A stretch of 64,000 bases of DNA from Solwaraspora sp. WMMD792 (lineage in GTDB: Bacteria; Actinomycetota; Actinomycetes; Mycobacteriales; Micromonosporaceae): contig NZ_JARUBH010000009.1 of assembly GCF_029626105.1 (NCBI RefSeq), positions 7,000,011 through 7,064,010 on the forward strand, read 5' to 3'. The position numbers and the translations under genes were made by a program. Positions within the stretch are counted from its first letter, which is position 1. The number at the start of each line of letters is the position of its first letter. Below the pieces are notes generated by a model, which made no database searches, had not been told where the DNA came from, and worked only from the letters and a program-made list of their open reading frames with translations. Positions 23,027 through 35,713 of the stretch are shown in pieces.

Positions 23027-23141
23027 GTACCCAGAGTAACCACCTTGTGCGCCCATTTGACTACCCTGAGTGGTGGAAATCTGTTTCGGTCGGGTGGCGC
23101 GGGCGTGGCGATCGGGTCACCCTGGCCATAAGCTGATCATT

Positions 23142-24770
23142 ATGAATATGAGAGATCCTCGATCTTTTGTGTTGGCTGGTTGGCGGGTCGTCGCGACGAC
23201 ACTCGCCGCTACCGCGCTGGTGCTTTCCGCAACCATGGCCCATGCCGCGCCGTACACCGACCCACACGCCGAGCCCGCCGACCTCGCCTCGGCGGCGACC
23301 TCGGCGGCCGCCGAGGTGCCGCTCGACCAACTCTCCGTCACCAGCACCCAGGTCGCCTTCGGGCTGCAACGACCGACCGCGATGGTGGCTCCGGACGACG
23401 GCAGCGGCCGGCTGTTCATCACCGAGAAGGCCGGCCGGGTGCGGGTCTACCATCCGGCCTCCGGCCTGGCCGAGACGGCTCTGCTGGACATCGGCGACCG
23501 GGTCGACACCTCCGGCAACGAACGTGGCCTGCTGGGCATCGCCACGACCCCCGGATTCGCCGCCGACCCGGCGATCTACCTGGCGTACACCGCGCTGCCC
23601 GACGGCGCGGTCACCCTGTCCCGGCTGCCGCTGGACGCCGCCGACCAGCAGCCGGTGCCGGCCGACCGGGAGGAGATCCTGCTCAGCCAGCCGCACGCCG
23701 AGTACGCCAACCACAACGGCGGGCAGCTCGCCTTCGGCCCGGACGGCCACCTCTACTGGAGCATCGGCGACGGCGGCGGCGCCGACGACGTGCTCGGCAC
23801 CGGACAGGACCTCGGCACCCTGCTCGGCAAGATCCTCCGGCTGGACGTTTCGGCCGCCTGCGGCGACCTTGCGTACTGCGTACCGGCGGACAACCCGTTC
23901 GTCGGCGAAGCCGGCGCCCGCGCCGAGATCTGGGCGTACGGCCTGCGCAACCCGTGGCGGTTCTCGTTCGACCCGGCGGACGGCTCGCTGTGGATCGCCG
24001 ACGTCGGACAGGGCAGCTACGAGGAGGTCAACCATCTGCGCGGGGTGGCCGGGGCCAACCTCGGCTGGTCCTGTCGGGAAGGTCCGGTCGAGTTCGACCC
24101 GCAGCGGTGCGACCCGGCGGCCGAGTACGTCGACCCGGTGTTCCACTACCAGACCTCGGTCGGCGGCTGCGCGGTGATCGGCGGCCACGTCTACCGGGGC
24201 AGCGAATCCGCCGCTACCGGCACCTACCTGGCCACCGACTACTGCTCGGCGACCGCGTACGCGATCCGGCCCGACGCGGACGGTGGGTACGACACTGCGG
24301 TCATCGGCGAGCTGCCGATCCAGCCGACCACCCTCGCGGTGGCCGCGGACGGCGAGTTCTACCTCGCCAACGACCTGCCCGGCCAGCTGCACCGGATCAC
24401 CTTCGAGGCCGACGAACCGGATCCGGTCGCCGAGTGCCTGGTCGACTACCGGGTGGACAGCGACTGGGGGTCGGGTTTCACCGTGACGGTCGGCGTCACC
24501 AACACCGGTGACGAGCCGATCGACGGCTGGTCGCTCGGTTGGTCGTTCGCCGGCGCACAGCAGGTAGCGGTCGCCTGGAACGCGGTGATCACCCAGGACG
24601 CGGCGACGGTGACCGCCACCAACGCCGCCTGGAACGCGTCACTGCCGGCTGGCGGCCGGGTCGAGTTCGGCTTCCTCGGCGGCGGCGGGGCAGGCGCCGG
24701 ACCGGTGCCGGCCGGGTTCACCCTCAACGGCCTGCCCTGCGACCCGGCGCCGGCGGTGACCACCGGCTAG
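23142..24770 (+). CDS. Secreted PQQ-type glucose/sorbosone dehydrogenase with CBM2
   Basis: A 542-residue protein with a signal peptide (1-35, ending TMAHA-APY). The GSDH beta-propeller (about 65-430) has PTAMVAPDDGSGRLFITEKAG, NERGLLGIA, HNGGQLAFGPDGHLYWSIGD and YGLRNPWRFSFDP, the family signatures that form the PQQ and calcium site. A C-terminal family 2 carbohydrate-binding module (about 440-535) has the sequence SDWGSGFTVTVGVTNTGDE and three conserved Trp. The enzyme probably oxidises a sugar end of a bound polysaccharide outside the cell, possibly feeding electrons to lytic polysaccharide monooxygenases. The start ATG at 23142 leads straight into the signal peptide. Confidence 0.88.
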   Translation: MNMRDPRSFVLAGWRVVATTLAATALVLSATMAHAAPYTDPHAEPADLASAATSAAAEVPLDQLSVTSTQVAFGLQRPTAMVAPDDGSGRLFITEKAGRVRVYHPASGLAETALLDIGDRVDTSGNERGLLGIATTPGFAADPAIYLAYTALPDGAVTLSRLPLDAADQQPVPADREEILLSQPHAEYANHNGGQLAFGPDGHLYWSIGDGGGADDVLGTGQDLGTLLGKILRLDVSAACGDLAYCVPADNPFVGEAGARAEIWAYGLRNPWRFSFDPADGSLWIADVGQGSYEEVNHLRGVAGANLGWSCREGPVEFDPQRCDPAAEYVDPVFHYQTSVGGCAVIGGHVYRGSESAATGTYLATDYCSATAYAIRPDADGGYDTAVIGELPIQPTTLAVAADGEFYLANDLPGQLHRITFEADEPDPVAECLVDYRVDSDWGSGFTVTVGVTNTGDEPIDGWSLGWSFAGAQQVAVAWNAVITQDAATVTATNAAWNASLPAGGRVEFGFLGGGGAGAGPVPAGFTLNGLPCDPAPAVTTG

Positions 24771-25434: not shown

Positions 25435-25746
25435 CTACCGCGTCTCCGCCGGCCGGGGCGTAACGCCCAGTTGGGCACAGGCCTCCTGGTACATCCGGAC
25501 CACCTCGTGGCGAACCTGGACCCGTTCGGTGAGCCGGTACGCGAACGGCACCCGGACCGGCACCTCGACGCCGGCCACGGTGGCGGTGAACTCGATGCCG
25601 TCGGCGTCCAGGCCGGTCATCCGGGCCGCCGTCGCCTGCGGGGTGCCACCTAGCGACCGGCAGATCAGCAACGAGTCGGCCGCGTGGTCGTCGTTCATGT
25701 GCCGAGCCACCTGGGCGACCACCTCGGCGGTGAACGGGCCGGTCAC
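25435..25746 (-). CDS. DUF2470 heme-utilization protein
   Basis: A 103-residue protein, all of it one DUF2470 domain: VAQVARHMNDDHAADSLLICR (with the conserved HMNxDHxxD), MTGLDADGIEFTATV, VRVPFAYRLTERVQVRHEVVRM. This domain is found at the end of HugZ-type heme oxygenases and in plant glutamyl-tRNA reductase-binding protein, where it relates to heme binding. The start overlaps the heme oxygenase stop in ATGA, which fits a role in heme degradation. Confidence 0.88.
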   Translation of the reverse strand: MTGPFTAEVVAQVARHMNDDHAADSLLICRSLGGTPQATAARMTGLDADGIEFTATVAGVEVPVRVPFAYRLTERVQVRHEVVRMYQEACAQLGVTPRPAETR

Positions 25747-26420
25747 GCCGCCGACTCCATCGACTCCGGCGCCACCGGCTTCGGCTCCTGCTCCTGGCCC
25801 AGCTCGGCGAGGACCGCGGAGTTGTGCCGGTAGGCCACCGCCACCTCGCCGACCAGAGCCGCCTCGGCGGTGACGTCCAGCGGCAGGGCGTCCAGCCGGG
25901 CCCGGTACGCGTTCTTGTATCCACGCGGATCGTCGATGCCGGCGAAGTGGTAGAACGCCACGCCGCTCTCCTCGGTCAGCTCGTACGTCTGCGCCACCTG
26001 ACGGCCGATGAACAACCCGCCGGACAGGTCACCGAGGTACCGGGTGTAGTGGTGGGCGATGAACGCTGGCGCGAAGGTGAAACAGACCTCCTGCATCCGG
26101 GCGACGTAGCGGCGGGTCGCCAGGCTCGGGGCGATCCGGCCGGCCCAGTCCGGGCCGAGCAGGTACGCCAGGTCGGCCTCCAACGCCGGCAACCGGGTCA
26201 ACCGGTCGTCGACGAAACCGCCGGCCAGCGGATCGTCGCGCATCGCGTCGGCCGCCTCCTCCAGCACCTGGTAGATGAAGTAGTGCTGGGCGACCAGGTC
26301 GGCGTACCGCTGCCGGGGCAGCTCCCCGGCGACCAGCGCGGAGACGTACCGCTGGGACTCGGCCGCCTGGTGGTCCTGCCAACTTGCCGCCCGCAGCCGG
26401 GCGGAGAAGGTGTCACTCAT
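25743..26420 (-). CDS. hmuO: Biliverdin-producing heme oxygenase
   Basis: A 225-residue alpha-helical heme oxygenase. LRAASWQDHQAAESQRYV carries the proximal His ligand (His16 approximately), QHYFIYQVLEEAADAM is helix 2, and YLGDLSGGLFIGRQ is the distal glycine-rich helix over the heme. The enzyme opens heme to biliverdin, CO and iron in the cytoplasm. ATGA overlaps on both sides tie it to the heme ABC transporter upstream and the DUF2470 gene downstream, making one import-and-degradation operon. Confidence 0.93.
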   Translation of the reverse strand: MSDTFSARLRAASWQDHQAAESQRYVSALVAGELPRQRYADLVAQHYFIYQVLEEAADAMRDDPLAGGFVDDRLTRLPALEADLAYLLGPDWAGRIAPSLATRRYVARMQEVCFTFAPAFIAHHYTRYLGDLSGGLFIGRQVAQTYELTEESGVAFYHFAGIDDPRGYKNAYRARLDALPLDVTAEAALVGEVAVAYRHNSAVLAELGQEQEPKPVAPESMESAA

Positions 26421-27313
26421 GTCGGGGGTTCCTTTCCTTGCCGGGTGGGGTGCTGCCGTCGCGGAACAACCAGCGGGAGTCGGGTCTCGGGGTGCGGCAA
26501 CACCTCGATGTCGTGCCGGTACACCTCACTGAGCAGTGCACCGGTGAGGACCTGGTCGGGTGGTCCGACGGCCCGCAGCCGGCCGGCCGACAGCAACGCG
26601 ATCCGGTCCGCGTACGCACCGGCCAGACCGAGGTCGTGCAGCACCACCACGACGGCGTCACCGGCGGCGGCCCGCTGCCGGGCGAGCCGCAGCACCAGCT
26701 CCTGGTGGTGCAGGTCGAGGGCGGCGGTCGGTTCGTCGAGCAGCAGCGCGGCGGCCCGCTGGGCGAGCACCCGGGCCAGCGCCGCGCGGGCCTGCTCGCC
26801 GCCCGACAGCGAGGTGAAGGTACGGTCCGCGAACCGCGCCACGTCGGTGGCCGTCAGACACTCCTCGACGATCGGGTCGTCGGACTCCTCGGCGGGCAAC
26901 CCGGCCCACGGTGCCCGGCCCATCCGGACCACCTCGGCGACGGCGAACGGGAAGGACAGCACGCTGCGCTGGGTCAGCACCGCCCGACGCAGCGCCAGCT
27001 CGGTCGAGGTCCAGGCGGACTGCGGCGCGCCGTCGATCCGGATCGCGCCAGCGGCCGCCGCGACGTCGCCGCCGATGGCGGCGAGCAGCGTCGACTTGCC
27101 GGCACCGTTGGGACCGACCAGGGCGACCACCTCGCCAGTGTGAACCACCAGGTCGACCTGGTCGAGCACCGCCCGCCCGCCGAGTTCGACCCGCAGCCGG
27201 TCGATCTCGATCAGCGCGTTGCCGGCCGGCCGGGCGGCCGGCACCCGGACGGGCCTGCGCCGGCCGAGCAGCCGCCCCGGACGCCCGCCGAGCAGCCGCC
27301 CCGGCGGGCTCAT
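26417..27313 (-). CDS. hmuV: Heme ABC transporter ATP-binding protein
   Basis: A 298-residue ATPase of the iron-siderophore/heme type. Walker A GPNGAGKST (about 69-77), Q-loop LTQRSVLSFPFAVAEVV typical of HmuV, signature LSGGEQARAALARVLAQ, Walker B ALLLDEPTAALD and the switch HDLGLAG. An N-terminal Arg/Gly/Pro-rich extension of about 35 residues precedes the domain, so the real start could be a little later. ATGA overlaps join it to the permease and the heme oxygenase. Confidence 0.92.
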   Translation of the reverse strand: MSPPGRLLGGRPGRLLGRRRPVRVPAARPAGNALIEIDRLRVELGGRAVLDQVDLVVHTGEVVALVGPNGAGKSTLLAAIGGDVAAAAGAIRIDGAPQSAWTSTELALRRAVLTQRSVLSFPFAVAEVVRMGRAPWAGLPAEESDDPIVEECLTATDVARFADRTFTSLSGGEQARAALARVLAQRAAALLLDEPTAALDLHHQELVLRLARQRAAAGDAVVVVLHDLGLAGAYADRIALLSAGRLRAVGPPDQVLTGALLSEVYRHDIEVLPHPETRLPLVVPRRQHPTRQGKEPPT

Positions 27314-28359
27314 CCCCAACCTCCGGCCCGGCGCCGGGTACGGCGCAGCAGCCAGAAGAAGGCGGGTCCGCCGACCACCGCGGTGAGCACCCCGAGCGGC
27401 AGTTCCTGGTACTCGACCAGGGTCCGGGCGGCCAGATCGGCGGCGATCACCACTACCGCCCCGCCGAGCGCGCTGGCCGGTAGCAGCACCCGGTGCCCGG
27501 GTCCGGCGACCATCCGGACCAGGTGCGGCACCACCAGACCGATGAAGCTGATCACGCCGGTGAAGGCCACCGCGGCGGCACCGAGCAGCGCGGTGACGAT
27601 GATCATGCGTACCCGGAGCCGTTCCACGTCCACCCCGAGGTGACGTGCGGAGCGTTCGCCGAGGGCGAGCAGGTCCAGCTTGCCGGCCGAGGCGAGTGCG
27701 GCGGCCAACCCGACGACCAGGCAGGGCAGGGCGACCGCCACCGCGTTCCAGTTGGCCTGGGCCAGGCTGCCGAGGTTCCAGAAGGCGATCGCCTGCACCC
27801 CGGCCGCGTCGGTGACGAACATCAGCAGACCGATCGCGGCACCGGCGACCGCGTTGACCGCGATGCCGGTGAGCACCAGGGTGACCACCTCGGTACGTCC
27901 GTCGGCGCGGGACAACGCGTACACCAGGTAGGTGGTGGCCAGCCCGCCGGCGAACGCGGCAGCGGCCAGCGTCCAGCCGCCGAGCGTGGAGATTCCGGTG
28001 ACGATGGCCAGGGCGGCGCCGACCGCCGCACCGGAGGAGACCCCGATGACCCCGGGTTCGGCCAGCGGGTTGCCGAAGACGCCCTGCATGACGGCGCCGG
28101 CGCAGCCGAGCGACGCGCCGACGATTCCGGCCAGGACGACCCGGGGGAACCGGACGATCCACAGCGCGTTCTCGCCGTGCGGTGCGGCCGGCAGCGCGCC
28201 GATCTCCAGACCGAGCCGGTGCAGCACCGAGGCGACCACCTCGGCCGGGGCGATCTGCACCTGTCCGGAGCCGGCGGCGACCACGCCGACGACGAGCAGC
28301 GTGCCGGCGAGGCCGGTGAGCAGCAGCGGACGGCGGTTGGCGAGTACGGGAGCGGTCAC
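27310..28359 (-). CDS. hmuU: Heme ABC transporter permease (FecCD family)
   Basis: A 349-residue permease with about ten membrane helices. Family signatures include RFPRVVLAGIVGASLGCAGAVMQGVFGNPLAEPGVIGVSSGAAVG and, late in the protein, FTGVISFIGLVVPHLVRM with the coupling region. It forms the membrane channel for heme together with HmuV. It starts four bases after the hmuT stop. Confidence 0.93.
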   Translation of the reverse strand: MTAPVLANRRPLLLTGLAGTLLVVGVVAAGSGQVQIAPAEVVASVLHRLGLEIGALPAAPHGENALWIVRFPRVVLAGIVGASLGCAGAVMQGVFGNPLAEPGVIGVSSGAAVGAALAIVTGISTLGGWTLAAAAFAGGLATTYLVYALSRADGRTEVVTLVLTGIAVNAVAGAAIGLLMFVTDAAGVQAIAFWNLGSLAQANWNAVAVALPCLVVGLAAALASAGKLDLLALGERSARHLGVDVERLRVRMIIVTALLGAAAVAFTGVISFIGLVVPHLVRMVAGPGHRVLLPASALGGAVVVIAADLAARTLVEYQELPLGVLTAVVGGPAFFWLLRRTRRRAGGWG

Positions 28360-28363
28360 GCCG

Positions 28364-29407
28364 TCACCGGCATTCGTGGATGGCGCGGGCGAGAGCCTGG
28401 ATCGCCTTCCCGGTACGGGTGCCGAAGTTGAGCAGCACGGTGTCGTCCATGTCGATGATCCGTCGCTGCTGGCCGGCCGGGGTCTGGGCGACGCCGGGCA
28501 TGGCGACCAGGCCGTCCACCCCGCCGACCGATTCGAGGCCCTTGGTCATCACCAGGATGACGTCCGGTGCGGCGTTGATCAGACCCTCGCTGGTCAGTGG
28601 CCGGAACCGGGCCAGTCCGATGGCGGTGCCGGCGTCCTCGCCGCCGGCTGCGGCGATCATCGCGTCCGAGCCGGCACCTTCGCCGCCCATCAGGTAGACG
28701 CCGGCGGTGCCGCGCAGGTAGAGGAAGGCGACCCGGGGTCGCTCGGCGTCGTCCGCGATGCCGTCGCGGGCGGCGGCGATCTCGCCTTCGACCCGGGCGA
28801 CGAGTGCCTCGCCGGCGTCGGCGACGCCGAGCGCGGCGGCCACCTCACGGATGTGCACCGGTACGGCGGCCAGGCTCTGTTCGTCGCCGATCCGTACCAC
28901 CGGAATGCCGGCGGCGCGGAGCTGGTCGAGCACCTCGGGCGGGCCGATGCTGTCGTCGAGCAGCACCACGCTGGGGTCCAGCGCCATGACCGCCTCGGTG
29001 GACAGATCGTGTCCGCCGGGGGTGACCAGCGGCAGGTCGGCGGCGGCCGGGAAGTCGGTGGAGGTGTCCCGCCCGACGACCCGGTCACCGAGGCCGAGGC
29101 TGAAGACGATCTCGGCGATGGAGCCGTACAGGTTCACCGCGAGGATGCGGTCGGCGTCGGTCACCGTGACCCGGTCGCCGGCGGCGTCGGTGACGGTGAC
29201 CGGCAACGCCGGCTGCGGCGCCGGGTCCAGCGGGGTCACCGCGTCGTCGGCGACGACGGCGGTGACCGGCCCGCAGGTCGCCGGTTCCGGTGCCGCGCCT
29301 GGGTTGGCGGCGCTGTCGGCGCAGCCGGCCACCGGGCCGACGAGCAGCGCGGCGGCGAGCAGCCCGACCAGGGTCGGGCGGTTCACGACCAGCGTCGGGC
29401 GGTTCAC
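28364..29407 (-). CDS. hmuT: Heme-binding lipoprotein of the ABC importer
   Basis: A 347-residue periplasmic-binding-type lipoprotein with signal segment and lipobox LLVGPVAGC. The two-lobed binding domain (about 70-347) has AVNLYGSIAEIVFSLGLGDRVVGRD, VMALDPSVVLLDDSIGP, GEGAGSDAMIAAAGG and MDDTVLLNFGTRTGKAIQAL. It delivers heme to HmuUV. The start is GTG in a GTGA overlap with the gene upstream. A 21-bp repeat gives a second GTG at 29386 with the same seven codons (VVNRPTL twice), so either may be used. Confidence 0.9.
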   Translation of the reverse strand: MNRPTLVVNRPTLVGLLAAALLVGPVAGCADSAANPGAAPEPATCGPVTAVVADDAVTPLDPAPQPALPVTVTDAAGDRVTVTDADRILAVNLYGSIAEIVFSLGLGDRVVGRDTSTDFPAAADLPLVTPGGHDLSTEAVMALDPSVVLLDDSIGPPEVLDQLRAAGIPVVRIGDEQSLAAVPVHIREVAAALGVADAGEALVARVEGEIAAARDGIADDAERPRVAFLYLRGTAGVYLMGGEGAGSDAMIAAAGGEDAGTAIGLARFRPLTSEGLINAAPDVILVMTKGLESVGGVDGLVAMPGVAQTPAGQQRRIIDMDDTVLLNFGTRTGKAIQALARAIHECR

Positions 29408-29410
29408 GAC
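29369..29410. repeat. 21-bp tandem repeat x2 across a GTGA overlap
   Basis: Two copies, one mismatch apart (29369-29389 and 29390-29410). Each contains GTGA, that is, the stop of the upstream surface-protein gene and the start of hmuT. Because 21 is a multiple of three, the duplication adds seven codons to hmuT and provides a second start. Confidence 0.85.
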
Positions 29411-30312
29411 CGGCTCCGGCGGTGCCGGCGGCGGACAGCGGACAGCCCGGCCAGCGCCAGTACGCCGAGCGCCAGCAGGATCAGCGTGCTGCTCCACCAC
29501 CGGCCGGCCGGGCCGACGGTGCTGACCCGGGTGACCGCCAACCCGGTCGGTTCGGTGCCGGCGACGGCGGTCGGGCCGGCGGTGTCGTCGGTCGGTTGGC
29601 CGGTGGTGGCACCGGCGGCTGGTGCGGAGCCGCTGGGGTCACCGGCCGTACCGTCGGTGTCGGACGGGCCTGCGGCGTCGCCGGTTGCCGGGGCCGGTGG
29701 CGCGGTGGTCCGGTCCGGGCTGCCGGCAGCCGGGGCGGCGCTGGTGCGGGCGGGCGCGGCGGCGGCCGCGAAGCTGATCGGGACGCGTACGTCCTGACTG
29801 CGGTCGCTGGTCCGGGTGTGGTCGGCGCGGGTGACCACCGAGCAGGTGCGTACGGTGCAGTCGACGTCGCCGATCCTCGCGGTCAGCGGGACCCGGACCT
29901 GGAACGAGCCGCCGTCGCCGTACGGCACGGCCAGTCCTTCGCCGTACGACGGAGGGTTGCTGGAGATCCAGTGCGAGCTGCCGCTGCCGCCGGAGGTGTC
30001 CACCCCGCCGCCGCACGGTGTCGGCAGCGCCCCGTCGCCGTTGTCCACACAGAACCCGACGTAGATGCCCTTGTTGGTGTCGTACCCGGTGCCGGTAACC
30101 GTGACGGTCGCGCCGGAGCGACTGATGCCGGTGGAGTCGGAGACGGTGAGTCGCTGGCCGCCGGATCCGGTCGCGGAGGTGTCCGCGTGGGCCGGCGACG
30201 CCAACGGTGGTGCGGCGAGTACGGCGGCGGTCGCGACGACGGCGGTCGCGGCGGTGGCGGTTACGACCGCCAAGGTCGCGGTGACCCGGCCGCTGAGCAG
30301 CGGCGTTGGCAT
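29404..30312 (-). CDS. Surface protein with neocarzinostatin-like domain, first gene of the hmu operon
   Basis: A 302-residue secreted protein. Signal peptide 1-43. An Ig-like domain (about 50-185) has GATVTVTGTGYDTNKGIY, two cysteine pairs (FCVDN/PCGG; VDCTVRTCSVVT) and DRSQDVRVPISF, the layout of neocarzinostatin-type chromoprotein domains. A Pro/Ala/Thr-rich stalk (about 190-265) leads to a C-terminal membrane helix with an Arg-rich tail (LILLALGVLALAGLSAVRRR), so it is anchored in the membrane and crosses the wall. The domain is clearly related to one inside the HtaA protein encoded across the divergent promoter. GGAGGGATC supports the start. A heme-relay role is inference. Confidence 0.8.
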   Translation of the reverse strand: MPTPLLSGRVTATLAVVTATAATAVVATAAVLAAPPLASPAHADTSATGSGGQRLTVSDSTGISRSGATVTVTGTGYDTNKGIYVGFCVDNGDGALPTPCGGGVDTSGGSGSSHWISSNPPSYGEGLAVPYGDGGSFQVRVPLTARIGDVDCTVRTCSVVTRADHTRTSDRSQDVRVPISFAAAAAPARTSAAPAAGSPDRTTAPPAPATGDAAGPSDTDGTAGDPSGSAPAAGATTGQPTDDTAGPTAVAGTEPTGLAVTRVSTVGPAGRWWSSTLILLALGVLALAGLSAVRRRHRRSRS

Positions 30313-30350: not shown

Positions 30351-30369
30351 GAAGGTTTGCCTAACCTAA
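30351..30369. promoter_or_regulatory. Iron box (DtxR/IdeR-type) for the hmu arm
   Basis: GAAGGTTTGCCTAACCTAA matches the 19-bp consensus TTAGGTTAGGCTAACCTAA at 15 of 19 positions. It lies 39 bases upstream of the minus-strand operon start, where a bound IdeR/DmdR1 would block transcription when iron is plentiful. Confidence 0.8.
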
Positions 30370-30441: not shown

Positions 30442-30460
30442 TTAGGCATGGCTAACCTAA
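30442..30460. promoter_or_regulatory. Iron box (DtxR/IdeR-type) for the HtaA arm
   Basis: TTAGGCATGGCTAACCTAA matches the same consensus at 16 of 19 positions. It lies 70 bases upstream of the HtaA-WxL gene. With the site at 30351 it gives one iron box per divergent transcript. Confidence 0.82.
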
Positions 30461-30529: not shown

Positions 30530-32038
30530 ATGATCACATCCAGAGCTGGTGCTCTGGGGCGACGGTCGGCGACCTGGGCGGCTGCGGCCGTGCTCGGCGC
30601 CGCGACCGCACTCGTCGGCGCCGCACCCGCAGTGGCTGCCCCTGCCGACATCACCGAGGGAAGCCTGAACTGGGGCTTCAAGGAGTCGTTCCGCAACTAC
30701 GTGTCGTCCGGCGACGGCAACCCGCCGATCGCGGTGAGTGACGGTGCGTCGATCAACGCCGATGGCACGTTCGCCTTTCCGTCCACCGGTGGCAGCTACG
30801 ACGCCGAGACCGGTGAGACGAACGCCACGTACGGCGGCACGGTCGTCTTCTCGTTCCCGGCGCACACGTTCACCATCACCCTGGCCAACCCGACGGTGGC
30901 CATCTCCGGCGGCACCGCCGTCCTCAAGGCAGACGTCGAACTGGAAAGCACCGCGTTCCCGTCGGTCGACGTCACCCAGGCGGTCATCGCCGACCTCACC
31001 ACCACCGACGCCAACCTGGCGGCTGGTGCGGACGGCATCACCGGCACCGACCTGACCGCCATTCTGACCGCTGAGGGCGCCACCGCCTTCGCCGGCTTCT
31101 ACCCGGCCGGCCAGGTCCTCGATCCGCTGTCGTTCGAGGCGGTCACCTCCGGCGGCGGTGGACCGACCGCTCCGTCGGTCGACGTCACCCCGGACACCGA
31201 CGTCGACCCGGCCGGCGCCACCATCACCGTCGACGGCAGCGGCTTCGACCCGCAGGCCAATGACGCCGCCGGGATCTACGTGTCGTTCGGCCCGAAGGTC
31301 GACGAACACTGGACCAACGCCAGCGTCCTGCAGGTCACCAAGTGGGTGAGCAGCACCAACGAGCCGACCGATGCCCGGGACACGATGAACCCGGACGGCT
31401 CGTTCAGCACCACGCTGCCGATCAGTGCCCAGTACACCGACCGCAACGGCAACGCGGTCGACTGCACCGTCACCCAGTGCTATGTGATCACCTTCGCTGC
31501 GCGCGGGTCCGCCGACCGCAGCCAGGACACCTTCACTCCGATCAGCTTCGCGGCCCCGGCCGGCGGCGGCGACGCCAGCCAGCAGATCGCCGCGACCGTG
31601 CTGGGCGGCGGCCCGCTCACGCTCAGCGTGGCCGGTTCCTCGGTCACCCTGCCGCCGACCGGCAACGGCGCCGTCACCAGCGGCGAACTGAACACCGCCA
31701 CCGTGTCCGACCTGCGCGGCACCAACGCCGGCTGGAGTCTGGTCGGTCAGGTGGGTGACTTCGTCGCCGCCGGCGGCGCGGTCATCGCGGCGGACAACCT
31801 CGGCTGGGCGCCCACCGCATCGGTGGTGGACGACCCGCTGGTCGGGCAGAGCGGCACGGTCACCCCGGGCGCGGTGGCCGACCCGGGTGCCGGACTCGGC
31901 ACCGCCCGGGCATTGTGCACCTCGGCGGCCGGCGCCAGCGCCGGCAGCTTCACCTGCGGCGCGCAGCTCAACCTCGGCGTACCCGCTGCGGCGGCGCCGG
32001 GCGACTACACCGCGACCCTGACGCTGACCCTGTCCTGA
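30530..32038 (+). CDS. HtaA heme-binding domain protein with neocarzinostatin-like and WxL-like domains
   Basis: A 502-residue secreted protein with signal peptide 1-37. An HtaA domain (about 42-205) begins EGSLNWGFKESFRNYV and ends in VDVTQAVIADLTTTD; HtaA domains bind hemin in Corynebacterium. A middle Ig-like, neocarzinostatin-type domain (about 213-345) has VDCTVTQCYVITF and SADRSQDTFTPISF. The C-terminal domain (about 347-502) has DLRGTNAGWSLVGQVGDF (W402 approximately) and DNLGWAP, the two Trp signatures of WxL domains, which bind peptidoglycan. No transmembrane anchor is present, in contrast to classical HtaA, so the WxL-like domain probably holds it on the wall. AAAGGA and an iron box precede it. 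Confidence 0.85.
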   Translation: MITSRAGALGRRSATWAAAAVLGAATALVGAAPAVAAPADITEGSLNWGFKESFRNYVSSGDGNPPIAVSDGASINADGTFAFPSTGGSYDAETGETNATYGGTVVFSFPAHTFTITLANPTVAISGGTAVLKADVELESTAFPSVDVTQAVIADLTTTDANLAAGADGITGTDLTAILTAEGATAFAGFYPAGQVLDPLSFEAVTSGGGGPTAPSVDVTPDTDVDPAGATITVDGSGFDPQANDAAGIYVSFGPKVDEHWTNASVLQVTKWVSSTNEPTDARDTMNPDGSFSTTLPISAQYTDRNGNAVDCTVTQCYVITFAARGSADRSQDTFTPISFAAPAGGGDASQQIAATVLGGGPLTLSVAGSSVTLPPTGNGAVTSGELNTATVSDLRGTNAGWSLVGQVGDFVAAGGAVIAADNLGWAPTASVVDDPLVGQSGTVTPGAVADPGAGLGTARALCTSAAGASAGSFTCGAQLNLGVPAAAAPGDYTATLTLTLS

Positions 32039-32109
32039 GGATCAGCCCCACCGGCCGGTGCGGGGCCGCGACGGTCCCGCACCGGCCACCGGCCCGACTG
32101 GAGCGCCCG

Positions 32110-33132
32110 ATGTCCGCCCCGCCCACCCGTCGCCCGCACCGCCGCCGCGCCGCCACCGGCCTGCTGGTGGCCGGACTGCTCGCGTTGCCCGGCGCCACCC
32201 CGGCCGCCGCTCAGCCGGCCGGTCCGGCTCCGGCCGACGCGGTCACCTGGGCGGTGCAGCCGTCCAGCGTGGACGGGCCGACCGGACGCAACTACTTCGT
32301 CTACGACCTCGCCCCAGGCGCGGAGATCACCGACCACGTCGCGGTGCGCAACCTCGGCGACCAGGACCGGACGTTCACCGTGTACGGCACCGACGGGTTC
32401 CTCACCGACGACGGCGCGTTCGCCCTGCTCCCGGCCGACGAACCGGCCACCGACGTCGGCACCTGGATCCACTTCGACCAGCGGGAGTACGCGGTGCCGG
32501 CCGGGGAACGGCTGGACATCCCGTTCCGCCTGACGGTGCCGGCCAACGCGACACCCGGTGACCACGCCGGCGGGGTGATCGGCTCCATCGCCCAGCTCCG
32601 TACCGACGCCAGTGGCCAGCAGGTCAACGTCGACCAGCGGGTCGCCGCCCGGGTCTACCTGCGGGTCGACGGCCCGGTCCGGCCGGCGGTCAACGTCGAA
32701 TCGATGAGCATCAGCTACGACGACCCGGTCAACCCATTGGGCGACGGTGACGTGGAGGTCACCTACCAGGTGCGCAACACCGGAAACATCCGCGTCGGTG
32801 GTACGGGTGCGGTGCTGCTGGACGGCCCGCTGGGCTGGGAGCTGGCCCGCACCGATCCGGTCGACCTGCCCGAACTGCTGCCCGGCAGCACCTTCACGGT
32901 GACCGAGCGGATCACCGGCGTACCGCCGGCGCTGCGGCTGACCGCCACCGTCGACCTGGCCCCGACCACGGTGGACGAGGCGTTGCCACCGGTCACCCGT
33001 ACCGCCGGTGTCTGGGCACCGCCGTGGTTGCTGCTCGCCGCGATCGCCGTCCTCGCCGGGTGGTTCGGGGTACGCCGCTGGCGTACCCGCCGCACGGTCT
33101 CCGGCACCGCCCCGACCAGCACCGCGCCGTGA
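32110..33132 (+). CDS. DUF916/WxL-partner surface protein
   Basis: A 340-residue protein with signal peptide 1-35 and a C-terminal membrane helix followed by an Arg-rich tail (about 300-330, LLLAAIAVLAGWFGVRRWRTRR). The ectodomain has VTWAVQPSSVDGPTGRNYFVYDLAPG and ITDHVAVRNLGDQDRTF, the DUF916 (WxL-protein peptidoglycan-binding) start, then GDHAGGVIGSIAQL and a second Ig-like domain similar to DUF3324. In firmicutes these proteins are encoded with WxL proteins and bind them and peptidoglycan. Finding it directly downstream of the HtaA-WxL gene supports the WxL call and suggests a wall-bound complex. Confidence 0.83.
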   Translation: MSAPPTRRPHRRRAATGLLVAGLLALPGATPAAAQPAGPAPADAVTWAVQPSSVDGPTGRNYFVYDLAPGAEITDHVAVRNLGDQDRTFTVYGTDGFLTDDGAFALLPADEPATDVGTWIHFDQREYAVPAGERLDIPFRLTVPANATPGDHAGGVIGSIAQLRTDASGQQVNVDQRVAARVYLRVDGPVRPAVNVESMSISYDDPVNPLGDGDVEVTYQVRNTGNIRVGGTGAVLLDGPLGWELARTDPVDLPELLPGSTFTVTERITGVPPALRLTATVDLAPTTVDEALPPVTRTAGVWAPPWLLLAAIAVLAGWFGVRRWRTRRTVSGTAPTSTAP

Positions 33133-34016
33133 CCGGCCGGCGAACCTCGGTGTGCGCCCTGGCCCTGGTCCTGGTCGCCGGGGCCGGCGGCCTGCGGTCG
33201 GCACCCGCGACCGCCACCGCGCCCCAGGTCGCCGTCGCACCGGCCGACGCCCCCGTCGGTGCGCCGGTGAGCGTCACCCTGACCGGCTGGCCGACCGGCA
33301 CCGTGCAGCTGGAGGTCTGCGGCAACCAGGCCCGCCGGGGCGCGCTCGACTGCGCCACCGGATCGGCCCGACAGCTGTACGTCGCCGACCCGCAGCCGGT
33401 CGCCGCCCAGCTCACCGTTGCCGCACCGCCGGTGGCCTGCCCCTGCGTGGTTCGCGCCCGGGCCCTCGCCCCGGACACGGAGGACGCGGTGGCGGTACCG
33501 GTGACCGGCACCGCCGCGATCGACGTCACCGACCTGACCGCGCCGGTTGCCCCGGCCGGGCTCGATCGGGCCGGGCTCCGGCTGGCCGGGGTGAGCGTGG
33601 CACCGGCCGAGCGGAACTGGTCGGCCCTGTTCGCCCTACGCGGCGAGATCGCCATCGACGTCGACCTGCGCAACGACGGCACCGCCGAGGTCGGTGCGGC
33701 GCAGCTGTCCCTGCTGACCGGCCGGCCCGGTCGCGCGACATCAGTGGTCGAGGCGACCGACATCGCGCCGCTGCCGGCGGGGCAGGCCACCACCGTCCGG
33801 ATCGTGGTGCCGGTCGACGGACCGCTGTACGGCCGGTACGCCGTACTGGGGCGGTTGACCACGGCGGAGATGGTTGGCGGCTCCGCCGCGGTGGAGTTCG
33901 AGGTGCAGACCGAGCGGTACCCGTGGGGCTGGGTCGCCCTGGCCGGCCTGCTGATCCTGGTGCTGCTGGTACGGCAGTTCGTCGGGTGGCGGCGCGACGG
34001 TCACCTGAGCGGCTGA
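33129..34016 (+). CDS. Membrane-anchored surface protein, neocarzinostatin-like N-terminal domain
   Basis: A 295-residue protein with a signal peptide, an Ig-like domain (about 33-130) that carries cysteine pairs LEVCGNQARRGALDC and ACPC, and a second beta domain (about 160-255). A C-terminal membrane helix and Arg-rich tail follow (GWVALAGLLILVLLVRQFVGWRR). The start GTG overlaps the stop of the DUF916 gene (GTGA), so the genes are translated together. It is probably the third component of the wall-bound heme-capture complex; no enzymatic motif is visible. Confidence 0.78.
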   Translation: MTGRRTSVCALALVLVAGAGGLRSAPATATAPQVAVAPADAPVGAPVSVTLTGWPTGTVQLEVCGNQARRGALDCATGSARQLYVADPQPVAAQLTVAAPPVACPCVVRARALAPDTEDAVAVPVTGTAAIDVTDLTAPVAPAGLDRAGLRLAGVSVAPAERNWSALFALRGEIAIDVDLRNDGTAEVGAAQLSLLTGRPGRATSVVEATDIAPLPAGQATTVRIVVPVDGPLYGRYAVLGRLTTAEMVGGSAAVEFEVQTERYPWGWVALAGLLILVLLVRQFVGWRRDGHLSG

Positions 34017-34090: not shown

Positions 34091-35713
34091 TCAACAGCGG
34101 TTGATGGTCGAGTTGTTCAGCGCGATGTTGCGGATCACGATGTTCTGCCCGCACGGGTTTTCGTTGATCTGCGAATTGGTCAGCGTCAGGTTCTGCAGGG
34201 TGATGTCGCGCGACACCGGGAACTCGGTGCGCGAGGCGATCCGCACGTCCGAGCCGTTGACCGAACCGGAGACCGCCGCGATGTTCACGTTGTAGCAGTT
34301 CTCCAGCAGGATCGAGTTGCTGCCGGTGCCGGAGATGTCGATCCGGTCGATGACCGCGCCGCCGGACTCCGACACGCAGAAGATGCCCCGGCCGCCGCCC
34401 CGGGCGATCACCGTGCCGACCCGGATGTTCGTCGGGTAGCTGTCGCCGACCCGGCCGTTGCGGTTGGCCATCCGGAACCCGGCGTAGCCGGTGCCGGTGC
34501 CGGCGCCCTGCGCGTCGACGGTGCCGACGGTCGCGTTGATGGTGTCGTTGAGTATCAGGCCGGAGTAGCCGGTGTTGCGGGCGGTGACGGTGCCGACCGT
34601 CAGCCCGTCGACCCCGTACGTCTCGACGCCGTGCGCGCTGGTGCCCTGCACGTACACGTTGTCGATCCGCACGTTGCGGGACCGCTGGCTGCGGTCGCCG
34701 TGGTTGTCGATCCGGATGCCCAGGCCGGCGGTGACCCGGATGTCGATCTGGCCGAGGGTGATGTTGTTGCCGTTGCGGATGAAGATCCCGTACAGCGGGT
34801 TGCCGGTGATGTTGAGCCGGGTCACCTCGACGTCGGTGACGCCGCGGGCGTATACCACCGCCTGGTCACCGGAGCCGGAACCGGTCACGTTGACCGTGCC
34901 GCAGACCTCCAGGACGGTGTACGACGGCAGCGACAGCCGGGAGCCGGCGCTGATCGACCCGGAGCCACGCACGATCACCTTCTGCTTGCTGTTGCGCCCG
35001 GCGGACAGGCTGTTCACCGCCGCCTGCATGGCCGACAGCATGCTGGAGCCGGTGTAGACGGTGCTGCCGCCGTTGCGCGCCGTCCAGGTCGAGCCGTTCT
35101 GTACGGCCTCGGCGTTGAACGAGCCGGACCCGCAGCCGCCGGACGGCGGCGGGGTGGTCGGCGGCGGGCCGCCGCTGTCGACCCGGACCATCTGCCACTG
35201 CTGGTTCCAGCCGTTGAGGTCCTGGTACTGGGAGATGATCCCGCCGTCGGCGGTGGACCACTCCCACACGTCCAGCACCTTGCTGGTGTGCCGGTTGACG
35301 AACCGGACGTAACCGCTGTCCGAGTCCAGCACCCCGAAATGCTGGCGGGTGCTGCCGTTGTCGGGGTTCTGGACGAGCTGGGTGCCGTCGTTGGCGTTGG
35401 GCAGTTCCAGGTACTTGCCGCTGTGCCGGGACCGGATCTTGTAGTAGCCGTTGCCGGCCGCGACGAACTGCCACTGCTGAACGGTCTGGTCGTTGCGCGC
35501 CCACTGGACGATCGGCGCGCCGTCGTTGGTCGCCCAGTTGTACAGGTCGATCGCCTTGCCGCTGTGCCGGTTGACCAGCACGTACCAGGCGTTGGTGTCG
35601 ACGGTGGCAGCGGCCGCGTGCTGGATGCCGACCGCTGCGCCGGTGGCGACCATGGCGGTCGTGGCGAGCGCCACGACGCCGGTACGCCAGCGCCGCCATC
35701 TGGTGGCTGTCAT
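34091..35713 (-). CDS. Secreted ricin-lectin/beta-helix protein
   Basis: A 540-residue protein. Signal peptide 1-36. A ricin B-type trefoil (about 38-178) has repeated NRHSGKAIDLYNW, SRHSGKYLELPN and NRHTSKVLDVWEW blocks with QQW motifs, so it binds carbohydrate. A Pro-rich linker (about 180-193) leads to a right-handed parallel beta-helix (about 200-540) rich in N-I/V repeats (NITLGQIDIRV, NVRIDNVYVQG, NIRVGTVIARG), as in pectate lyases and polygalacturonases. I cannot assign catalytic residues, so the activity is open; an extracellular polysaccharide is the likely target. AGGAGG precedes the start. It is a single gene. Confidence 0.82.
   Translation of the reverse strand: MTATRWRRWRTGVVALATTAMVATGAAVGIQHAAAATVDTNAWYVLVNRHSGKAIDLYNWATNDGAPIVQWARNDQTVQQWQFVAAGNGYYKIRSRHSGKYLELPNANDGTQLVQNPDNGSTRQHFGVLDSDSGYVRFVNRHTSKVLDVWEWSTADGGIISQYQDLNGWNQQWQMVRVDSGGPPPTTPPPSGGCGSGSFNAEAVQNGSTWTARNGGSTVYTGSSMLSAMQAAVNSLSAGRNSKQKVIVRGSGSISAGSRLSLPSYTVLEVCGTVNVTGSGSGDQAVVYARGVTDVEVTRLNITGNPLYGIFIRNGNNITLGQIDIRVTAGLGIRIDNHGDRSQRSRNVRIDNVYVQGTSAHGVETYGVDGLTVGTVTARNTGYSGLILNDTINATVGTVDAQGAGTGTGYAGFRMANRNGRVGDSYPTNIRVGTVIARGGGRGIFCVSESGGAVIDRIDISGTGSNSILLENCYNVNIAAVSGSVNGSDVRIASRTEFPVSRDITLQNLTLTNSQINENPCGQNIVIRNIALNNSTINRC

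What the first reader, a model, noticed from the sequence alone, without database searches (positions are those of the whole stretch)
30530..34016. Wall-bound heme-capture system: HtaA domain combined with a WxL-like domain and a DUF916 partner
HtaA hemophores are known from Corynebacterium, where they are membrane-anchored. Here an HtaA domain, an Ig/neocarzinostatin-like domain and a WxL-like domain (GWSLVGQVGDF, LGWAP) are fused with no membrane anchor, and the next gene encodes a DUF916 protein, the usual partner of firmicute WxL proteins. A third GTGA-coupled surface protein follows. The operon faces hmuTUV and heme oxygenase across two iron boxes. This suggests heme caught at the wall by a WxL complex and handed to HmuT, which I have not seen described.
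Basis: partly seen in the sequence, partly recalled or inferred. Interest (0 to 1): 0.75.

Follow-up and report, generated by a model that had tools for sequence, protein, structure and literature searches.

The report
Heme-binding protein docked by WxL partner
Soil bacteria related to Micromonospora appear to hold an iron-scavenging heme-binding protein on their surface with a two-part docking module (WxL plus its partner protein) best known from lactobacilli and enterococci, instead of giving it its own membrane anchor.

Summary
The protein at 30530-32038 is a secreted HtaA (heme-binding) domain, a neocarzinostatin-like stretch and a C-terminal WxL domain, without a membrane anchor. The next gene (32110-33132) encodes a DUF916/WxLIP protein with two Ig-like domains and a membrane helix. 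Across the window's only two iron boxes lie hmuTUV-like genes and heme oxygenase.

The WxL call is under Pfam's cut-off for this protein, but two orthologues pass it, and profile-profile comparison with 13 Enterococcus and Melissococcus WxL domains gives 94-95% (six control pairs: 3.1% or less). The second WxL tryptophan is lost. The DUF916 model's best PDB hits are enterococcal WxLIP.

DUF916 stands beside HtaA-WxL in 26 of 26 named loci and was detected in 0 of 53 HtaA loci without WxL. C-terminal membrane helices: 0 of 27 HtaA ORFs with WxL, 61 of 88 without. WxL proteins of other DUF916 loci carry peptidase, glycosidase or phosphatase domains, so HtaA looks like one cargo of a wider display platform.

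Heme binding, wall binding and hand-over to HmuT are inferred. I found no description in the papers searched. New variant of a known kind.

The parts
30351..30369 (+). iron box 1 (DtxR/IdeR-like), in the divergent promoter region
   Evidence: 3 mismatches to the recalled consensus; only 2 hits in 64 kb, 0.00 expected
30442..30460 (+). iron box 2 (DtxR/IdeR-like; one search reports it on the minus strand)
30530..32038 (+). secreted HtaA / neocarzinostatin-like / WxL protein, 502 aa, no C-terminal membrane helix
30659..31135 (+). HtaA (CR) heme-binding domain, residues 44-202; S53, Y57, H112, Y191 invariant in the 24 aligned sequences (window and 23 relatives)
   Evidence: PF04213 1.2e-41; PDB HtaA CR structures by sequence and fold; conservation
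31175..31558 (+). neocarzinostatin-like Ig domain, about residues 216-343; missing in 9 of 23 aligned Micromonosporaceae relatives, which have a linker instead
   Evidence: (weak)
31559..32035 (+). WxL domain, residues 344-502; motif 1 W402-S-L404 kept, motif 2 reads L499-T-L501
32110..33132 (+). WxLIP-like protein: signal peptide (by eye), DUF916, second Ig-like domain, helix 306-330 (transmembrane by its make-up), basic tail
   Evidence: PF06030 2.6e-8, profile match to EfmWxLIP1, AF2 model and Foldseek
33129..34016 (+). third secreted protein with C-terminal hydrophobic stretch (by eye) and four invariant Cys; found in 16 of 23 relatives' loci
29404..30312 (-). secreted neocarzinostatin-like protein with C-terminal hydrophobic stretch (by eye), first gene of the divergent heme-import run
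   Evidence: PF00960 5.2e-5, 23.7 bits, cut-off 25; relative present beside HmuT in 23 of 23 loci
28364..29407 (-). HmuT-type binding lipoprotein (lipobox by eye; start inferred; heme specificity by context)
27310..28359 (-). HmuU-type FecCD permease
26417..27229 (-). HmuV heme ABC ATPase
   Evidence: NF010068 318 bits, cut-off 261
25743..26420 (-). heme oxygenase
   Evidence: PF01126 1.3e-52

Best explanation
This is an iron-regulated heme-uptake locus of a Micromonosporaceae bacterium in which the surface heme-binding protein is held by a WxL-WxLIP docking module instead of its own membrane helix. The HtaA domain binds ferric heme through the conserved tyrosine (Y57). Its C-terminal WxL domain docks on the DUF916 domain of the membrane-anchored partner and probably on peptidoglycan. 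The captured heme then passes to the lipoprotein HmuT, is imported by HmuUV and opened by heme oxygenase. Iron starvation lifts a DtxR/IdeR-type repressor from the two boxes and switches on both arms. Shown here by computation: domain identities, gene pairing, iron boxes, lack of an own anchor. Inferred: heme binding, WxL-WxLIP contact, wall contact, transfer, repressor action.
For: HtaA by profile, PDB sequence and fold. The residues that bind heme in the solved CR domains (axial Tyr, propionate Ser and Tyr; PMC12494546, passages) are invariant in the 24 aligned sequences. WxL homology by hhalign, 94.3%, E 1e-7, against 13 annotated Enterococcus and Melissococcus WxL domains (95.0% when repeated); six control pairs gave 0.10-0.53% and, for one, 3.1%. 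DUF916 profile over cut-off, profile match to EfmWxLIP1 at 2e-5, and Foldseek ranks 1-3 all WxLIP, the top one from the entry titled 'WxLIP ... bound to long WxL'. DUF916 follows HtaA-WxL in 23 of 23 Micromonosporaceae loci and in 26 of 26 named loci, and was detected in 0 of the 53 named HtaA loci without WxL (7 loci are in both sets). C-terminal membrane helix in 0 of 27 HtaA ORFs with WxL and 61 of 88 without. Iron box upstream in 47 of 47 loci scanned (40 distinct), against 10 hits in the remaining 689 kb. Class-wide: 80 of 136 WxL domains have DUF916 within 400 bases downstream.
Against: The window protein itself scores under Pfam's WxL cut-off, and the second WxL motif has lost its Trp in all 24 aligned HtaA-WxL sequences (Leu in 21, Val in 3). 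Of ten relatives scanned, only two pass the WxL cut-off and three (L047, L097, L123) have no WxL match at E 0.01. The actinobacterial WxL profile found no WxL chain in the PDB, and Foldseek of the whole model listed none in its top 50. Ig-like folds match widely (266 PDB hits at E 0.001 or better for the DUF916 model), so the fold match alone is not specific, and its TM-scores are moderate. No member of 30 matched DUF3324, the second domain of the standard WxLIP. The invariant His does not fall on the helper His of the corynebacterial domains in the pairwise alignments. Heme binding, docking and wall binding were not tested.
Confidence: 0.72

Rival explanations
1. The HtaA-WxL protein is mainly a released, diffusible hemophore; the DUF916 membrane protein is a surface receptor to which the loaded protein returns through its WxL domain, rather than a fixed wall anchor.
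For: The protein has no anchor of its own. In C. diphtheriae ChtA and HtaA are partly secreted (PMC12494546, passages). The DUF916 protein ends in a hydrophobic helix.
Against: WxL proteins of other DUF916 loci carry enzyme domains (peptidase, glycosidase, phosphatase), which suits display better than return; WxL domains are reported to recognise peptidoglycan in Firmicutes (PMC9772566, first part read).
Confidence: 0.17
2. The C-terminal domain and DUF916 protein form a surface complex in which the HtaA domain has lost heme binding and serves another role such as adhesion or sensing.
For: The helper His is not aligned with that of corynebacterial CR domains; no binding was measured.
Against: Axial Tyr, propionate Ser and Tyr are invariant in 24 aligned sequences and at least 90% conserved in a wider set of 27; hmuT-, hmuU- and hmuV-like genes stand beside it in 23 of 23 loci fetched, with iron boxes.
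Confidence: 0.06
3. The C-terminal domain is an unrelated Ig-like domain and the resemblance to WxL is chance.
For: Below curated cut-off in the window protein; the second motif lacks Trp; three of ten relatives have no Pfam WxL match.
Against: Profile-profile match with controls, orthologues above cut-off, DUF916 present in 55 of 57 WxL-bearing genomes.
Confidence: 0.03

Closest known systems
HtaA / ChtA / HtaB conserved-region (CR) hemophore family of Corynebacterium with HmuTUV and HmuO
   Same: Same heme-binding domain, same kind of importer and heme oxygenase, control by iron.
   Different: Those carry a C-terminal nonpolar segment that presumably tethers each protein to the membrane (PMC12494546, passages); here anchoring seems handed to a WxL domain and a DUF916 partner gene.
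Firmicute WxL clusters (Csc; small WxL, large WxL, WxLIP)
   Same: Large WxL protein with an N-terminal functional domain and C-terminal WxL, next to a WxLIP with signal peptide, two Ig-like domains and C-terminal helix.
   Different: Actinobacterial; one WxL gene instead of two in the window (Nocardiopsis L072 has three); second motif L-x-L; no DUF3324 match; cargo is a heme-binding domain under iron boxes. I did not find HtaA named as WxL cargo in the literature searched.
Ang-2 HupE/UreJ-2 metal-binding proteins of Actinomycetota, whose neighbours include DUF916 genes (PMC12537917)
   Same: DUF916 beside a metal-handling surface protein in Actinomycetota, already in print.
   Different: A different metal protein (Cu, possibly Fe); the word heme does not occur in its main text, and the part read names no HtaA and no WxL partner gene.
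NEAT-domain Isd heme uptake of Firmicutes (recalled)
   Same: Wall-held heme binder relaying to an ABC importer.
   Different: NEAT fold and sortase anchoring; unrelated domains.

Membership tests
HtaA / CR heme-binding domain (PF04213) | Profile match above curated cut-off | tested here: met
   143.5 bits, cut-off 24
HtaA / CR heme-binding domain (PF04213) | Fold of solved CR domains | tested here: met
   Foldseek 6jsc_A E 5.3e-11, TM 0.89 by target length
HtaA / CR heme-binding domain (PF04213) | Axial Tyr plus propionate-binding Ser and Tyr | tested here: met
   S53, Y57, Y191 invariant in 24 aligned sequences; roles from PMC12494546
HtaA / CR heme-binding domain (PF04213) | Helper His beside the axial Tyr | tested here: inconclusive
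   H112 invariant but not on the helper His column, two columns off for HtaA CR2
HtaA / CR heme-binding domain (PF04213) | Binds hemin | not testable with these tools
   needs protein
HtaA hemophores of Corynebacterium | C-terminal membrane segment | tested here: not met
   no hydrophobic C-terminal segment in window or in 26 relatives
WxL domain (PF13731) | Profile match above curated cut-off | tested here: not met
   18.5 bits whole, 22.2 bits domain, cut-off 25; orthologues L054 54.1 and L050 30.4 bits pass
WxL domain (PF13731) | Homology to Firmicute WxL domains | tested here: met
   hhalign 94.3-95.0%, E 1e-7 to 4e-8; six control pairs 3.1% or less
WxL domain (PF13731) | Two Trp-x-Leu motifs | tested here: not met
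   motif 1 W402-S-L404 present; motif 2 is L-T-L
WxL domain (PF13731) | C-terminal position in a secreted protein | tested here: met
   residues 344-502 of 502; signal peptide by eye
WxL domain (PF13731) | Binds peptidoglycan | not testable with these tools
   needs pull-down
WxLIP | DUF916 (PGBD) profile above cut-off | tested here: met
   34.4 bits, cut-off 27.3; 30 of 30 aligned sequences match at E 0.1 or better
WxLIP | Second domain DUF3324 (HBD) | tested here: not met
   not among the 17 families that the 30 sequences match; 27 match NPCBM_assoc instead; Foldseek to WxLIP over 272 columns
WxLIP | Signal peptide, two Ig-like domains, C-terminal membrane helix | tested here: met
   AF2 pLDDT 86.9, strands 47-186 and 194-303, helix 306-330; signal peptide and hydrophobicity by eye
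[quoted passage not shown]
   one WxL in the window locus; three WxL ORFs in Nocardiopsis L072 and two in L155, L156, L172
WxL gene cluster as defined in PMC10599100 | Small LPXTG protein, often present | not tested
   no sortase-motif scan was run
HmuTUV-type heme importer | Binding lipoprotein, FecCD permease, heme ABC ATPase, heme oxygenase in one run | tested here: met

The most novel reading that the evidence does not exclude
Actinomycetes have a general cell-surface display platform made of a WxL domain and a membrane-held DUF916 docking protein, onto which unrelated cargos are mounted (HtaA heme binder, X-Pro peptidase, GH18, GH43 plus lectin, purple acid phosphatase). In Micromonosporaceae its heme version, with neocarzinostatin-like domains as intermediate heme carriers, forms a relay across the wall to HmuT that replaces the membrane-tethered HtaA chain of Corynebacterium and Streptomyces.
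Probability: 0.4. Interest if true: 0.75.

Novelty: new variant of a known kind. Interest (0 to 1): 0.62.

Why it matters
[quoted passage not shown] Here the cargo has a likely small ligand and a known kind of importer, so the module's purpose becomes testable by a colour assay and by growth on heme. It would also be a second way in which Gram-positive bacteria hold a hemophore, and would explain how HtaA proteins without a membrane anchor stay on the cell. The pairing seen across actinomycetes suggests a display system for exoenzymes that I did not find described.

Tried and rejected
Rejected: chance resemblance of the C-terminal domain to WxL.

Led nowhere or counted against: the actinobacterial WxL profile against PDB sequences gave nothing believable, and the enterococcal WxL protein found no PDB chain either. 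The full-length AF2 model (pLDDT 77.8, pTM 0.41) gave no WxL hit in the top 50. Of ten WxL proteins or domains scanned, two pass the Pfam cut-off, five match below it (16.9-24.6 bits) and three (L047, L097, L123) do not match at E 0.01, so these three rest on my own profile or on tblastn. Of ten WxL proteins scanned, four match PF13731 at E 0.001, one above cut-off. The DUF916 tree (68 rows; L033, L034 and seven duplicates left out) needs 6 changes of the HtaA label, but well-supported branches force only 2, so repeated origin is suggested, not shown. In L055 no heme oxygenase was found in the stretch fetched. The membrane-helix count without WxL (61 of 88) looks only at the last 60 residues and includes fragments. 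The 0 of 53 for DUF916 holds for the stretches fetched, some of them cut by contig ends. In one search several minus-strand loci were translated on the wrong strand; those translations were not used. One search used the DUF916 rows down to E 1.7e-53 (111 rows), so adjacency is a lower bound. Literature searches returned 325 and 1,438 papers, of which 6 and 8 were listed, so they exclude little.
Full report
What is there. Three co-directional genes lie at 30530-34016. The first encodes 502 residues: signal peptide (by eye), HtaA domain (44-202, PF04213 E 1.2e-41), a neocarzinostatin-like stretch, and a C-terminal domain that Pfam aligns to WxL (PF13731) at E 0.0022, below its cut-off. The second, 340 residues, matches DUF916, now called WxLIP_PGBD (PF06030, 34.4 bits, cut-off 27.3). 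The third overlaps it by GTGA and ends in a hydrophobic stretch (by eye). On the other strand, from 30312 down to 25743, run a secreted neocarzinostatin-like protein, an HmuT-like binding protein, a FecCD permease, a heme ABC ATPase and heme oxygenase. Between the two arms are two 19-base iron boxes, the only two in 64 kb at up to 3 mismatches to the recalled consensus, with 0.00 expected. That the host is a Micromonosporaceae bacterium is inferred: genomes with its family code include contigs whose lengths equal those of named Micromonospora, Actinoplanes and Dactylosporangium records.

Is the C-terminal domain really WxL? On its own it is borderline (22.2 bits, cut-off 25). Of the 32 aligned domains (window, same bacterial family, same genome), 31 match PF13731 at E up to 1, the best at 7.8e-8. 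Of ten relatives scanned, L054 and L050 score 54.1 and 30.4 bits (the first includes a proline-rich linker that may add to it), five match below the cut-off and three do not match at E 0.01. As an independent test I took 13 annotated WxL domains from Enterococcus and Melissococcus plasmids (one, twelve of the 29 records). Profile-profile comparison gave probability 94.3%, E 1e-7 and, repeated in a script, 95.0%, E 3.7e-8. Six control pairs between these two profiles and the HtaA, neocarzinostatin-like and DUF916 profiles gave 0.10-0.53% for five and 3.1% for the sixth, actinobacterial WxL against DUF916. The alignment pairs the first motif (GW-x-L) and the C-terminal strand (TWEFV/TWELS with TLTLS). 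So it is homologous, with the first motif kept (W402-S-L404) and the second Trp replaced by Leu (21) or Val (3) in the 24 aligned HtaA-WxL sequences.

Is the second gene a WxLIP? All 30 aligned sequences match PF06030 at E 0.1 or better. The family profile finds the solved Enterococcus faecium WxLIP at E 2e-5. The AF2 model (pLDDT 86.9, pTM 0.67) shows two beta domains and a helix at 306-330, and Foldseek's first three PDB hits are WxLIP, the first titled as bound to long WxL, E 7.9e-12. TM-scores are moderate (0.43 by target), with 10 A rmsd over both domains, and 266 PDB chains match at E 0.001 or better, as Ig-like folds do. DUF3324, the usual second domain, was not found by sequence in any of the 30.

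Is the HtaA domain likely to bind heme? Sequence and fold match the solved CR domains. The axial Tyr and the propionate-binding Ser and Tyr described in PMC12494546 (passages seen) correspond to Y57, S53 and Y191, invariant in 24 aligned sequences and at least 90% conserved in a wider set of 27 that includes Nocardiopsis and two MAGs. The invariant H112 does not fall on the helper His in the pairwise alignments (two columns off in HtaA CR2), so its role is open.

Survey. Of 150 genomes of the family searched, own included, 14 others hold full-length homologues and 9 a shorter HtaA-linker-WxL form in the part of the match list shown. I fetched all 23 neighbourhoods: DUF916 follows WxL in 23 of 23; the neocarzinostatin-like gene and hmuT-, hmuU- and hmuV-like genes are present in 23 of 23, heme oxygenase in 22, the third gene in 16. 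Among 79 named loci with an HtaA relative (the best 80 of 331 candidates), 26 have HtaA and WxL in one ORF and all 26 have DUF916; none of the other 53 has DUF916 at the profile's threshold in the stretch fetched. The 26 comprise 23 Micromonosporaceae loci (Micromonospora, Actinoplanes, Paractinoplanes, Dactylosporangium, Virgisporangium, Catenuloplanes), Nocardiopsis ansamitocini, a Microbacteriaceae MAG and a Dehalococcoidia MAG. Nocardiopsis has three WxL proteins (one with a neocarzinostatin-like domain, one with HtaA) and one DUF916 gene in a row. HtaA pairs without WxL occur in Streptomyces, Glycomyces and others and in three more genomes of the window's own family.

Anchoring. A C-terminal hydrophobic helix (mean hydropathy 1.6 or more in 19 of the last 60 residues) is present in 0 of 27 HtaA ORFs with WxL (26 plus the window) and in 61 of 88 without. 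WxL thus stands where the membrane anchor would be. This is the strongest hint at function that sequence alone gave here.

Regulation. An iron box (4 or fewer mismatches to the recalled consensus) lies in the 400 bases upstream of the HtaA domain's gene in 47 of 47 Micromonosporaceae and Nocardiopsis loci scanned (40 distinct), against 10 hits in the other 689 kb of the same loci; in Nocardiopsis the box has 4 mismatches, and 4 of the 10 outside hits are there. L097 and L123 were not scanned.

A wider platform. The window's genome has a second WxL-DUF916 pair without HtaA. In 296 genomes drawn from the class, 57 have a WxL match and 92 a DUF916 match at E 1e-8. Of the 136 WxL domains listed, 80 have DUF916 within 400 bases downstream on the same strand and 105 within 10 kb; 55 of the 57 genomes have both. 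Ten WxL proteins from such loci were scanned: GH18 in one, X-Pro peptidase S15 in two, GH43 with lectin in one, purple acid phosphatase in one, and no cargo domain in five, four of these without any match at E 0.001. HtaA is then one cargo among several. A tree of 68 DUF916 proteins needs 6 changes between HtaA-linked and other, but only 2 are forced by well-supported branches.

What is known. WxL domains are reported mostly from Firmicutes (over 91% of 938 sequences; PMC9772566, first of four parts read), and WxLIP was proposed to bind WxL through DUF916 (PMC10599100, abstract and first part of the results read). PMC12537917 (passages and first part of one section) notes DUF916 genes beside Actinomycetota-only Ang-2 metal proteins, so DUF916 beside metal handling in this phylum is partly in print. 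No paper in the library holds both HtaA and WxL. Further searches showed no description of actinobacterial WxL with heme (listings only apart from the papers named, and searches listed only a few of many). The library lacks most subscription journals.

Verdict. The finding is real, conserved and coherent: a hemophore family with a borrowed docking module. Binding and transfer steps remain inferred. I rate it a new variant of a known kind.

Noticed in passing
window 29404-30312 (-), 31175-31558 (+): Neocarzinostatin-like domains recur beside or fused to HtaA in actinobacteria without WxL (Prauserella, Jiangella, Amycolatopsis, Leifsonia, Kibdelosporangium); they may be heme carriers or an unrecognised part of heme uptake.
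   Followed up: partly
L072 7794-12900: Nocardiopsis ansamitocini carries neocarzinostatin-like-WxL, HtaA-WxL, a third WxL protein and one DUF916 gene in a row near hmuTUV, which fits the published definition of a WxL cluster.
   Followed up: partly
L097 1-8936: A Dehalococcoidia (Chloroflexota) MAG has HtaA-WxL, DUF916, heme oxygenase, neocarzinostatin-like gene, hmuTUV and another HtaA; possible transfer between phyla, or misbinning.
   Followed up: no
L057-L061: WxL-DUF916 pairs without HtaA lie downstream of an ABC ATPase weakly like HmuV (27-32% identity), so a second transport-linked version may exist.
   Followed up: no
window 33129-34016 (+): Third gene: secreted family with four invariant Cys and a C-terminal hydrophobic stretch, little or no Pfam match; a relative also sits behind a WxL-DUF916 pair that lacks HtaA (L057).
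   Followed up: partly
L175 435-6927: An Enterococcus faecium plasmid from fermented soybean has a lytic polysaccharide monooxygenase gene between its WxL and WxLIP genes.
   Followed up: no
window 23070-24770 (+) and 34091-35713 (-): Flanking genes: a sugar dehydrogenase with a cellulose-binding domain and a ricin-lectin protein with a weak beta-helix match, apparently unrelated to heme.
   Followed up: no
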